Assembly: GCF_018446385.1 (NCBI RefSeq)
Contig: NC_055996.1
Location: forward strand, 47,476,365-47,540,364
Reading direction: 5' to 3'
From: Zingiber officinale
Taxonomy: Eukaryota > Streptophyta > Magnoliopsida > Zingiberales > Zingiberaceae
Length of the DNA: 64,000 bases
Made by a program: the position numbers and the translations under genes
The notes under the pieces: model-generated
Databases searched by the model: none
What the model was told of the DNA's origin: nothing
Seen by the model: only the letters and a program-made list of their open reading frames with translations
Shown here: in pieces, positions 58,936 to 62,190 of the stretch
How positions within the stretch are numbered: the first letter of the stretch is position 1
Layout of the letters: each line of letters starts with the position of its first letter

Positions 58936-59144
58936 TTATATACATTTATTTTCATGTTCCTCTATATGATCATGCGTAGCATACACCAAGAAATGCTTCC
59001 GTGTTTACCATTTCTTGATTTTTGACTTGATTGTAAATCAAGTAACACACTTCTATATTCTTAAAAAAGATCTTGGCAAAATATTCTTTATCTAATATTT
59101 ACCATCATCTTTTATTGCTTATTTATATTTGTGCTTTCTTGCAG

Positions 59145-59299
59145 GAACACTTGTCAAAAGATGATGCTAAACAGCAGTTCTTTAGAATCTTGAGAACTCC
59201 TCCTTATGGGAATTCTGTTTTCTTCAGTGTATGGAAGATAGATGATCCTATAGGTCTGTTACCTGGATGAATCATTTTAGAAATTAATAAGTGAGGGGT
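59145..59299 (+). pseudogene. KCBP: Captured fragment of kinesin-like calmodulin-binding protein (FERM region)
   Basis: It is preceded by a pyrimidine-rich intron end (CTTTCTTGCAG at 59134-59144). The translated exon reads EHLSKDDAKQQFFRIL, YGNSVFFSVWKIDDPIGLLP, then a stop where Arg is expected, then IILEINK and a second stop. I recognise this as the MyTH4-FERM part of the plant kinesin KCBP (ZWICHEL), which organises microtubules and trichome branching. The two stops at Arg codons fit decay of CGA/AGA codons. Intron sequence is retained, so capture was from DNA and not from mRNA. Confidence 0.8.
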
Positions 59300-59343
59300 T
59301 AGTTAAAACATATTGTGGGTTATGTTTCTCCTTTTTTGGGCAG

Positions 59344-59930
59344 AAGTCATATCTTTATGAGGGGAAGAAGAAAGACCCTTAAAACAGAGAATACCAATGA
59401 AGAGGATAAGGCAGAATCTAATTGTTGTAACAATGTTGAGAGGTTTGGATTTGTACCTGGTCCAGATTTCACTCTGGAATCTTTTGAGACATATGCAGAT
59501 GAGTTCAAGAGACAATATTTTAGCAGAAGTGCAGAATTTGTTTTAGGGTCCTGCCAGCAGGAACCTTCCGATGATGATATTGAAGGTGAATATTGGCGGA
59601 TAGTGGAAAGACCAATAGAAGAGATTGAGGTGTCACCACATTTCCTATGCAGACATATATAATCATTATACATTTTCATCTGTTGATTTATTTCACAATT
59701 TGGCTTCACAACTTTGATGTGTTCTATCCACTTTCTTCTTTCCTTGAACCTTTGTTGTTTCCATACCTTAATATTAGAAACTTTATTCATATATTGGTTT
59801 CGACTAGAACCTGCAGCCAGGTAGAACTCTAACTCATATGTTGACTTTGGTTGTTTAGGTTCTTTATGGTGCTGATTTTGACACTGGAATTTTTAGTAGT
59901 GGCTTTCTCAAAGAGTAATCCTTTGCGAAG
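59344..59930 (+). pseudogene. Captured fragment of a JMJ14-type (KDM5-like) JmjC histone demethylase
   Basis: Exon 1 is 59344-59629, after an intron end TTTTGGGCAG. It reads KTENTNEEDKAESN, then GFVPGPDFTLESFETYADEF, KRQYFSRSAEFVLGSC and DDDIEGEYWRIVERPIEEIE. Intron 59630-59858 (GTGTCA...TTTAG). Exon 2 59859-59930 reads VLYGADFDTGIFSSGF and ends before GTATGA. This is the stretch leading into the JmjC domain of plant H3K4 demethylases of the JMJ14/JMJ15/JMJ18 group. The JmjC catalytic core is not present. A TAA lies in the last codons of exon 2. The frame of exon 1 is otherwise open. Confidence 0.82.
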
Positions 59931-60515
59931 GTATGAGCACTAGGGGATCAGTATATGAGTTCTGGATGGAATTTAAATAACATCATGACATACTATTATT
60001 TCCTAATAAAAACTGTGTACTAGTCTATTATGTCACAAGATTGTGTTTACATCATTTAATAAGTATCAAATGACAAGTCATATTTATTCTTTTCCCTTTT
60101 AACAAAAAAAAAAATGTATTTGTATATAGAACAGCATCTCTTTTCCCTTTTAACCAAGTCACGCCATATGCATCTTGCACATGGTGCATGGATGTGAGTG
60201 TGCATGAGTTTGTGTTAGCCAACAAACACTTGGGCGGCCGGGGTGTGCACATTACCGGTTTGTACGTAAGTAGCATAACCAATTCTTCATGTATATGATA
60301 AGTTTAGTTCTATCATGCTTGTATGAATTGATCAAATCTGTTGTTTATAAATACAAAAGTTTCCAGTTCCGAAAGTATTCTTCTTCTATATGTTCTGACA
60401 GTGTTATTCTTCTTTATGTCCCAATTAGAAACTCTTCGTATTCATTTACTAGAGGCCTTTTGGAAATTCATAATTCGTTATGTTTTACATTGTTGAATGT
60501 ATCTATTTTAAACAG
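59931..60515 (+). other. CACTA internal sequence, unidentified
   Basis: AT-rich. A GC-richer stretch at 60150-60260 (CATGAGTTTGTGTTAGCC...GGCGGCCGGGG) could be another captured exon but I do not recognise it. The word GAACAGCATCTCTTTTC occurs here (60129) and again near 61287. Confidence 0.45.
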
Positions 60516-60605
60516 GTTGGTTGTCGGATATTGGGCGGGTTGGCACATTTTGTTCACTGTTGGTGACAATATTTTTTCAAAGAGGCTTGCTGTTGCTTCA
60601 ATCAG
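60516..60605 (+). pseudogene. Unidentified exon-like segment in CACTA
   Basis: 90 bp bounded by AAACAG and GTAAAC, i.e. good splice signals on both sides. One frame is open through it (VVGYWAGWHILFTVGDNIF, ending SKRLAVASI). I do not recognise the protein. The context (other captured exons either side) suggests a fourth gene fragment or another exon of one of the three. Confidence 0.45.
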
Positions 60606-61486
60606 GTAAACTTCCTCTCTAACATTGCTTCTATTTTACTTGTATTAGTTTCATTTTACATTGTATTGGTTTGTTGTTTGATTTTATTGGTTAAAGTTCT
60701 CTTCGATCAATTCAGTTATAACAACTTTAGAGAGAATAGGTCATATTTAATTCTGTAAAAAGGTGAAGGCAAACCTTCTGATCATGACTTTGCCAACAAA
60801 TAAATGTTTGGTCAACAGCTTTAGGTCTCTTTTTTACATATAGAATTGGTCTTGATTCCTCTTATAAACTAGAGTTTAAATGTATTAGGACCCTTGCAGA
60901 GTTCAAACAAAGGGATTATTTATGTGATGAACATATTCTTTTACATGGACACATTACAACTGTTTACAAGGGATCAAACAGAGTAAAACGAATATTGTCA
61001 TGACAGAAAGTTTCAACTCTATAATTTTTTTATTTTTTTATTTTTGCTTTGATATTTTTCAAAGATATTATTTGTGCAAAAAAAACATAGTTAAAATAGT
61101 CACTATTCTCTCTAAACTTGTTCTGAACAATTTAATAATAATTTATTAAGGGACAAATTTAACTGAGAGCCCAAAATCAAAACAAGAACGGGCCCTTGCA
61201 ACAGTTTTTGTGGCCAGAAGCCGAAGCACTCGTCGTCCAACAGCGACACGTCATTGCTATAACTTTCGAAACGGTTCTTTGAAAGAACAGCATCTCTTTT
61301 CACTGCTTATAAACTAGAAAGATAAAATAAGAACTTATGGGTCCAAATTATCTGATTGAGTTTTCTATATAGCTCATATCAGGAATTACCATATAACTAC
61401 TAAGTTTTTACAACACAATGGTAAACACATATTTCAGAACAAGTTTTTTCATACATATAATAGTGTATTTCTTTTGATATCAATAG
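60606..61486 (+). other. CACTA internal sequence, probably intron-like
   Basis: AT-rich with poly-T at 61020-61045. A GC-richer patch at 61180-61260 is open on the minus strand (LLDDECFGFWPQKLLQGPVL), not recognised. Confidence 0.4.
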
Positions 61487-61605
61487 GTTGTTGATCTCCT
61501 AGTGCCTTATCAAAGGGGTTGAAAGATTAGACTTTTTGTTGGAGCTGGTGTGGGGAAGACTGGATTTATTATGGAACTGATGATCAATAATATTGAAAAA
61601 GGTTG
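61487..61605 (+). pseudogene. Captured fragment of mitochondrial ATP synthase beta subunit
   Basis: Follows an intron end (TATCAATAG). It reads VVDLLVPYQRG, a stop, KIRLFVGAGVGKTGFIMELM and INNIEK. This is the P-loop (Walker A, GAGVGKT) region of the F1-ATPase beta chain. YQRG and the intron upstream point to the nuclear gene for the mitochondrial subunit, as the plastid gene has no intron. Only about 40 codons remain, with a stop where Gly is expected and an extra residue before INN. Confidence 0.85.
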
Positions 61606-61907
61606 GTATAAAAGAATCAACATGTGAGAAAAAAGAGTTCAATGAAATCCTACAAGTTGAAGATTGTGATGGGACTTGTTCATTGGTTGGCTATTGTTGA
61701 TTAGTTGTAAATGGAACTTATTTGTTTATTTGTATTGAGATAAATTTTATTTAAACATGAGACATGTTTCTTCTTTTGTGATTGTAATTCTTGTATAAGT
61801 AACATTCTGAATGACATTGATGTGGGGAATATTCTTTCTTTTGTGATTATGATTCTTTATTATATATTTATATTGAAATATGATATATTGATATTAAAAA
61901 ATAATAA
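61606..61907 (+). other. CACTA sequence between captured exon and subterminal repeats
   Basis: AT-rich, no gene seen. Confidence 0.5.
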
Positions 61908-62190
61908 TTTAAAAGACAACAGTTTAAAACTGTTGTTGTTGTCTATCACCCTCAAAGACAACGGTTAAAATCCGTTGTCGTAGTCCCAAAAACGATTGTA
62001 ATGGGCAATGTTATTAAAAAAAATACTCTAAACAACAACGGTTTTAAACCGTTGTCTTTTCTTTCAAAGACAACGGTTTAAAACCGTTGTTGTAACCCCC
62101 TACTTTTAACAACATTGCCAATTACAACGGTTTTAAAGGGCCTACGACAACGATTTTTAGTCGTTGTCTTTTAATGTTTTTGTTGTAGTG
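61908..62190 (+). repeat. CACTA subterminal repeats and right terminal inverted repeat
   Basis: At least four inverted units of AAAGACAACGGTTTAAAACC and ACCGTTGTCTTT type (61911-62160), the usual transposase-binding layout, then the terminal CACTA repeat at 62176-62190. Confidence 0.88.

What the first reader, a model, noticed from the sequence alone, without database searches (positions are those of the whole stretch)
58936..62190. Pack-CACTA transposon with pieces of three unrelated host genes
One DNA transposon carries KCBP-like, JMJ14-like and ATP synthase beta-like exons in the same orientation, with introns, plus an unidentified exon-like segment. Splice signals remain at several borders, so a chimeric transcript is possible. 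A regulatory siRNA from it could touch a kinesin, a histone demethylase and a mitochondrial subunit at once.
Basis: partly seen in the sequence, partly recalled or inferred. Interest (0 to 1): 0.82.

Follow-up and report, generated by a model that had tools for sequence, protein, structure and literature searches.

The report
Gene-fragment-carrying CACTA transposon, truncated copy
A broken copy of a plant jumping gene carries scraps of a kinesin gene, a histone-demethylase gene, an ATP-synthase gene and one unknown locus; this is a known kind of element, the scraps look like decaying passengers, and one join may record how the plant's DNA repair stitched them together.

Summary
Window 58933-62190 is a copy of a CACTA family carrying, in one orientation and with introns, genomic pieces of a KCBP kinesin (91% to its donor), a JMJ14-type demethylase (94.5%) and an ATP synthase beta gene (87%). 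The unidentified segment lies in a fourth piece, from a C1/C2 locus (97%). Corrections: 58936 is not a transposon end (the left 852 bp are lost beside an LTR piece), and the JMJ piece holds two exon parts. The sister copy on C12 is complete (4097 bp, 3-bp TSD); 9 of 9 copies with both ends found have matching TSDs; the KCBP/JMJ junction occurs 23 times. A protein role is unlikely: the KCBP frame has a stop in 20 of 20 copies scored; JMJ and ATPB variants among copies look neutral. An siRNA hitting all three parents is poorly supported: 248 of 628 21-mers match JMJ, 47 of 388 KCBP, 0 of 220 the four ATPB loci tested. Most useful is templated filler at the border of the fourth piece, pointing to template-switching repair as a capture route. 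New member of a known kind (Pack-CACTA, Tgm-Express1).

The parts
58668..58934 (+). Truncated LTR piece (copia-like by my own reading of the sequence) that now borders the element; marks where the left end was lost
   Evidence: 94% to L028:143-409; the L028 sequence goes on differently past that point
58933..59340 (+). Captured KCBP (kinesin-like calmodulin-binding protein) piece; exon 59145-59297 with its acceptor and the donor GTTAGT at 59298, and intron on both sides
   Evidence: 91.2% over 408 bp to L034:298-705 (C22 KCBP gene)
59337..59984 (+). Captured JMJ14-type demethylase piece: exon part to 59629, intron 59630-59858, exon part from 59859
   Evidence: 94.5% over 649 columns to the C6 gene in L039; same ends in 4 of 5 other copies compared, 3 bp shorter in L020; about 5-bp overlap (TGGGC) with the KCBP piece; peptide; coordinates
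59985..60127 (+). Family sequence of unknown origin
   Evidence: shared to 60131 by 17 of the 19 other elements fetched (L012-L028); L009 and L011 continue past it, L010 is cut at 59723
60128..60154 (+). Templated filler at the border of the fourth piece: 60128-60145 repeats 61284-61301, 60139-60154 repeats 60088-60103
   Evidence: exact repeats in the window; patterns chosen after seeing them, chance expectation 0.00 and 0.01; also, with one or two differences, in L009 and L011, absent in L014, L020, L022, L024
60148..61201 (+). Fourth captured piece, from a locus on C1 and C2; exon-like 60516-60605 with AG before and GT after; unidentified
   Evidence: 97% to L033:2008-3053 and to C2:148248687-148249730; no PDB or Pfam match, one protein hit without a source
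61210..61432 (+). Family sequence of unknown origin
   Evidence: shared with the copies that carry the ATPB piece
61433..61604 (+). Captured ATP synthase beta piece; exon 61487 to about 61600, with an in-frame stop (GGT to TGA) seen only in the window among 14 copies
   Evidence: 87.2% over 61433-61588 to L052 (C7); peptide E 3.9e-10
61909..62172 (+). Subterminal inverted and direct repeats (GACAACGGTTT-AAACCGTTGTC type)
   Evidence: the repeat finder D1, D3, D5 and I1-I6
62166..62190 (+). CACTA right end ...TTGTTGTAGTG
   Evidence: same last 25 bases in 6 of 9 two-ended copies, TTGTTGTAGTG in 9 of 9; 1441 matches with up to 2 mismatches in the genome, control 0
62191..62193 (+). Remaining half of the 3-bp target site duplication (ACA)
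   Evidence: sister copy L009 has ACA on both sides
62191..63606 (+). Retrotransposon (gypsy-like by my own reading of the sequence) that the element had inserted into
   Evidence: 95.6% to the L009 flank; sequence

Best explanation
This is a dead, end-truncated member of a non-autonomous gene-capturing CACTA family. An ancestor acquired genomic DNA of KCBP, JMJ14-type and ATPB genes; the fused KCBP/JMJ element then spread to at least 23 places, presumably with transposase supplied in trans (inferred). A sub-lineage (window, C12, C6) replaced its middle by 1.05 kb from a C1/C2 locus. Templated filler at that border suggests repair synthesis that switched templates, most simply gap repair after excision (inferred). 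The cargo decays with little or no coding constraint, probably as methylated, silenced DNA (inferred). The window copy lost its left end next to an LTR piece and can no longer move (inferred from the missing end).
For: Donor genes with introns; 9 of 9 two-ended copies with TSDs; 23 junction copies, control 0; 1441 right ends, control 0; filler repeats; stops in the KCBP exon in 20 of 20 copies scored; distinct variants among copies, nonsyn/syn per site, 1.11 (JMJ) and 1.15 (ATPB); CpG positions changed by transition in 117 of 380 cells against 554 of 7010 at other C/G positions; left truncation.
Against: No RNA, methylation or small-RNA data. The KCBP ratio among copies is 0.65 (11 syn, 26 nonsyn), so some constraint is not excluded. 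The JMJ exon is unbroken in 11 of 20 copies, the window among them, and the ATPB exon frame is free of stops in 13 of 14 copies. Copies are related, so the CpG counts are not independent. Transposase source not shown: the PF02992 search did not complete. Several stretches of the element have no identified origin. The 8-9 bases at the right border of the fourth piece (CAGTTTTTG) have no known template.
Confidence: 0.85

Rival explanations
1. Capture by hybrid formation: two neighbouring elements lose facing ends and the DNA between them becomes cargo (the Pack-CACTA model of Catoni and colleagues, seen only as described in passages of PMC8903248 and PMC13317346; the original paper is not held).
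For: Two papers describe it for Pack-CACTA. The fourth piece is one contiguous genomic stretch flanked by left-side and right-side family sequence in the usual order.
Against: The left border holds filler that repeats sequence from both sides of the break, which simple end loss does not predict; no match to the element beside the piece in the 5 kb read at C1, apart from a 59-bp inverted match (78%) to the piece itself.
Confidence: 0.25
2. The cargo works: spliced chimeric RNA makes siRNA or protein acting on the parents.
For: Splice sites kept; long identity to the JMJ donor (145 nt, 248 of 628 21-mers); JMJ exon open in the window; Tgm-Express1 makes chimeric transcripts (PMC1947982).
Against: KCBP-exon stops in 20 of 20 copies scored; neutral-looking variants in JMJ and ATPB; 0 of 220 ATPB 21-mers; the KCBP splice donor and the AG at the JMJ border are only about 46 nt apart, short for a plant intron (recalled).
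Confidence: 0.08
3. The C1/C2 locus received its 1.05 kb from a transposon rather than donating it.
For: Direction cannot be read from identity alone; no recognised protein at C1.
Against: In the 5 kb read at C1 the element matches only the 1.05 kb; matching places on both C1 and C2, which other genes suggest are homoeologous; among the elements fetched the piece is found only in the window, L009 and L011.
Confidence: 0.07

Closest known systems
Tgm-Express1 (soybean wp allele; PMC1947982: abstract and Discussion read)
   Same: CACTA element with five unrelated host gene fragments, exons and introns kept, similar size (5.7 kb)
   Different: Tgm-Express1 sits in a gene intron and is shown to be transcribed; this copy sits in repetitive DNA, has lost an end, and belongs to a family with the same fusion at 23 places
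Pack-CACTA / Pack-TYPE elements (PMC8903248: passages and section 10 read)
   Same: Non-autonomous, CACTA ends, coding DNA from several loci; the paper reports that maize Pack-TYPE elements often hold more than one locus, Pack-CACTA the most. The 3-bp TSD as a mark of the group is recalled
   Different: Here one border carries templated filler; the window copy itself lacks an end
Maize Ds-l elements (PMC3260210: search listing and found passages, abstract in part)
   Same: Non-autonomous DNA transposon with gene fragments; the paper cites repair errors after excision as a suggested route
   Different: hAT superfamily, not CACTA; 'filler DNA' there means the unrelated interior of the element, not short templated filler at a junction

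Membership tests
CACTA (En/Spm) superfamily | CACTA...TAGTG terminal inverted ends | tested here: met
   family: both ends found in 9 copies; window copy: right end only, left end lost
CACTA (En/Spm) superfamily | 3-bp target site duplication | tested here: met
   9 of 9 two-ended copies, including sister L009 (ACA)
CACTA (En/Spm) superfamily | Subterminal repeats | tested here: met
   61909-62172
CACTA (En/Spm) superfamily | Mobilised by a tnp2-type transposase | not tested
   the PF02992 search did not complete
Pack-TYPE (Pack-CACTA) | Host gene sequence inside the element, donor present elsewhere in the genome | tested here: met
   KCBP, JMJ, ATPB, C1 locus
Pack-TYPE (Pack-CACTA) | Present in several copies with the same ends | tested here: met
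   23 junction copies; 9 with both ends among those fetched
Pack-TYPE (Pack-CACTA) | No transposase of its own | tested here: inconclusive
   Pfam at E 0.1 found nothing in 10 selected frames (2 window, 1 L012, 2 L022, 2 L014, 3 of the L033 donor locus), but these were not all frames, and the same scan also missed the known KCBP and JMJ pieces
Expressed chimeric gene | Transcript spanning the fused pieces | not testable with these tools
   no RNA data

The most novel reading that the evidence does not exclude
The family records at base level how CACTA elements gain genes: repair of a break inside the element copied about 18 nt from one side, 16 nt from the other, then invaded an unrelated locus and copied 1.05 kb before rejoining. 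Repeated events of this kind may have built a modular family with exchangeable left arms and middles. Copies shared by related chromosomes (C11/C12, C9/C10) would let the events be ordered against the polyploid history.
Probability: 0.5. Interest if true: 0.5.

Novelty: new member of a known kind. Interest (0 to 1): 0.36.

Why it matters
Multi-gene CACTA elements are known, but how they take up genes is not settled. A family with identified donor loci, a fixed KCBP/JMJ fusion, exchanged modules and one border with templated filler is a test case between template-switching repair and hybrid-element models. It also warns gene annotators: these copies could be miscalled as KCBP or JMJ14 genes.

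Tried and rejected
First ATPB donor guesses (L046-L051, picked from the PF00006 list) showed no match to the ATPB piece; the only translation printed (L047) did not read as ATP synthase beta, and I took the group, from recall, for V-ATPase B genes. L052-L055 then matched. Of the six PF00006 loci L040-L045 I compared three (L040, L043, L044); only L044 matched the ATPB exon, at 69.6% over 115 bp, and they were set aside. Identification of the fourth piece failed: no PDB hit at E 1, no Pfam at 0.1, and one protein hit without a source (84% over 55% of the query), probably the window's own. Pfam also found nothing in the KCBP and JMJ frames, so it is no test for such short pieces. KCBP exon against PDB: only weak hits, myosin VIIa E 0.094 and a glycosyltransferase E 0.67; the kinesin identity rests on the donor gene. 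Left arms of other sub-lineages look to me like an RBP45/47-type RRM protein (L012) and a UIEF-like protein (L022); both are recalled, and the RRM piece gave only E 0.013. A search for papers holding CACTA, JMJ14, transposon and captured found none; this does not show absence from print. Other paper searches.

Limits: of 2799 first-look candidates only 40 were scored; I fetched 20 regions (19 elements, one of them split over L010 and L011). Of 26 JmjN places, 5 were compared with the element (L035-L039; only L039 matched). Of two KCBP genes, one (C22) was compared over the captured exon. The C2 copy of the fourth locus was not fetched. The chance figures are for patterns chosen after the repeats had been seen, and the second is CT-rich. 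In some searches L011 has no KCBP or JMJ part to score.

Full report
The window lies in an unnamed 3.09-Gb genome, C11:47476365-47540364. The content (KCBP-type kinesin, JMJ14-type demethylase) and the CACTA ends point to a plant; pairs of gene matches on neighbouring contig numbers suggest two subgenomes. The species is not known to me.

Anatomy. The right end at 62190 reads ...TTGTTGTAGTG and is preceded by subterminal palindromic repeats. The family was traced by DNA search: 70 matches from 40 scored of 2799 candidates. Twenty regions were fetched: 19 elements, one split over two regions, which with the window make 20. In nine I found both ends, and 9 of 9 have matching 3-bp duplications: TTG, ACA, CAT, CAT, ACT, CTT, ACT, TTC, TAA. 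The two CAT copies, L020 and L021 (C9, C10), are 99.3% alike over 9.6 kb including flanks, so they count as one insertion. The window copy starts at 58933; the sister L009 on C12 has 852 bp more and a complete left end, 4097 bp in all. At 58933 the window switches to a truncated LTR piece, and the missing left part gave no match elsewhere in the window.

Same site on C11 and C12. Window 62191-63606 matches the L009 flank at 95.6%. The next 1310 bp of L009 have a match at C11:47557082-47558007, in the fitting orientation, 95% over positions 394-1308, about 17 kb beyond 63606. Against this: the stretch is a repeat (40 scored of 8310 candidates), and a C4 copy is slightly closer (96% over the whole length), so that match alone proves little. 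The two elements are 97.4% alike; the KCBP gene pair C22/C21, introns included, is 97.7-97.8% alike. This fits one insertion before the two subgenomes separated; it is an inference, and duplication of the locus or of its host retrotransposon is not excluded.

Cargo. KCBP: 58933-59340 equals L034:298-705 at 91.2%, introns included. In L010, L014 and L020 the KCBP piece reaches further left. The donor gene has MyTH4 exons and a motor domain whose best solved match is KCBP (3h4s, E 6.7e-60). JMJ: 59337-59984 equals part of a C6 gene at 94.5%, with the same ends in 4 of 5 other copies compared; the peptide matches rice Os05g0196500 (4igo, E 3.9e-28) and JMJ14 (5ykn, E 3.6e-18). The two pieces overlap by about 5 bp (TGGGC), as expected for a microhomology join. 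ATPB: 61433-61588 matches four ATP synthase beta loci, best C7 at 87.2%, others 80.6-85.3%; the peptide matches ATP synthase beta. Fourth: 60148-61201 matches C1 and C2 at 97%; no protein could be assigned. The identities suggest that the fourth capture is the most recent, provided the loci compared are the true donors.

Modules. The copies share parts of 58933-60131 and of 61210-62190 but differ in the middle, and several have other left arms. L012, L013, L015 and L017-L019 lack the ATPB piece; L015 and L017-L019 resume only at 61610. The KCBP/JMJ junction occurs 23 times at up to 2 mismatches (control 0), against 1441 right ends (control 0). The simplest reading is that the fusion arose once and spread.

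How the fourth piece came in. In L014, L020, L022 and L024 the family sequence runs TTTGTATATACAAGG. In the window, L009 and L011 it runs TTTGTATATA, then about 27 bp, then the C1 sequence. In the window those bases repeat 61284-61301 (18 of 18) and 60088-60103 (16 of 16), overlapping in TCTTTTC; shuffles gave 0.00 and 0.01 expected matches, for patterns picked after the fact. L009 and L011 differ from the window there by a few bases. The C1 donor joins at TAACC. At the right border 8-9 bases have no known template. Copying from one side, then the other, then a foreign locus is what template-switching repair synthesis would leave. I infer gap repair; the excision itself is not shown. A literature search for four of gene capture, filler DNA, template switching, transposon and CACTA returned 3 papers; the Ac/Ds paper (found passages) cites repair errors as a suggested route of capture.

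Does the cargo act? Coding: the KCBP exon has at least one stop in 20 of 20 copies scored, R50 to TGA in 19 of 20; the JMJ exon has stops or frameshifts in 9 of 20 and is unbroken in 11, the window among them; the ATPB exon has a stop in the window only, 1 of 14. Distinct variants among copies per site, nonsyn/syn: JMJ 1.11 (57 and 12), ATPB 1.15 (18 and 5), KCBP 0.65 (26 and 11). JMJ and ATPB look unconstrained; for KCBP the counts are too small to say. CpG positions of the KCBP and JMJ donors changed by transition in 117 of 380 cells against 554 of 7010 at other C/G, as expected for methylated DNA, though the copies are related. Small RNA: the window shares 248 of 628 21-mers with the JMJ donor (longest run 145), 47 of 388 with KCBP and 661 of 1034 with C1; of the 220 21-mers in 61401-61640 none is in any of the four ATPB loci tested, nor any 19-mer. 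A joint action on three genes is thus not supported by exact matches; an action on the JMJ gene is possible and untested.

Known kind. [quoted passage not shown] Tgm-Express1 carries five fragments and is spliced into chimeric RNA (PMC1947982, abstract and Discussion). siRNA from captured pieces acting on donor genes is described for maize Helitrons, Pack-MULEs and Sirevirus elements in a review (PMC13317346, passages). This element adds a well-resolved family and one informative junction.

Noticed in passing
L012, left arm (about 480-2060 of the element): This sub-lineage carries a frame resembling an RBP45/47-type RRM protein (recalled; PDB only E 0.013), so the family may hold more captured genes.
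   Followed up: partly
L022, left arm (about 480-1400 of the element): Frames with KEAIAMTEKKMNMSL and VDDIIKMSKKNSAKGKRPPRPP recall UIEF-like export proteins; two frames gave no Pfam match.
   Followed up: partly
L010 and L011 (C6:84249290 and C6:84268173): One element of the window's sub-lineage seems split by about 18 kb of other DNA, with an 8-bp overlap at window 59716-59723.
   Followed up: no
L020 and L021 (C9:47.97 Mb, C10:45.33 Mb): Same insertion at two related loci, 99% alike, while the C11/C12 pair is 97% alike; the rates or histories differ.
   Followed up: partly
window 58542-58720: A 35-bp unit present four times (69-97% alike) inside or beside the LTR piece.
   Followed up: no
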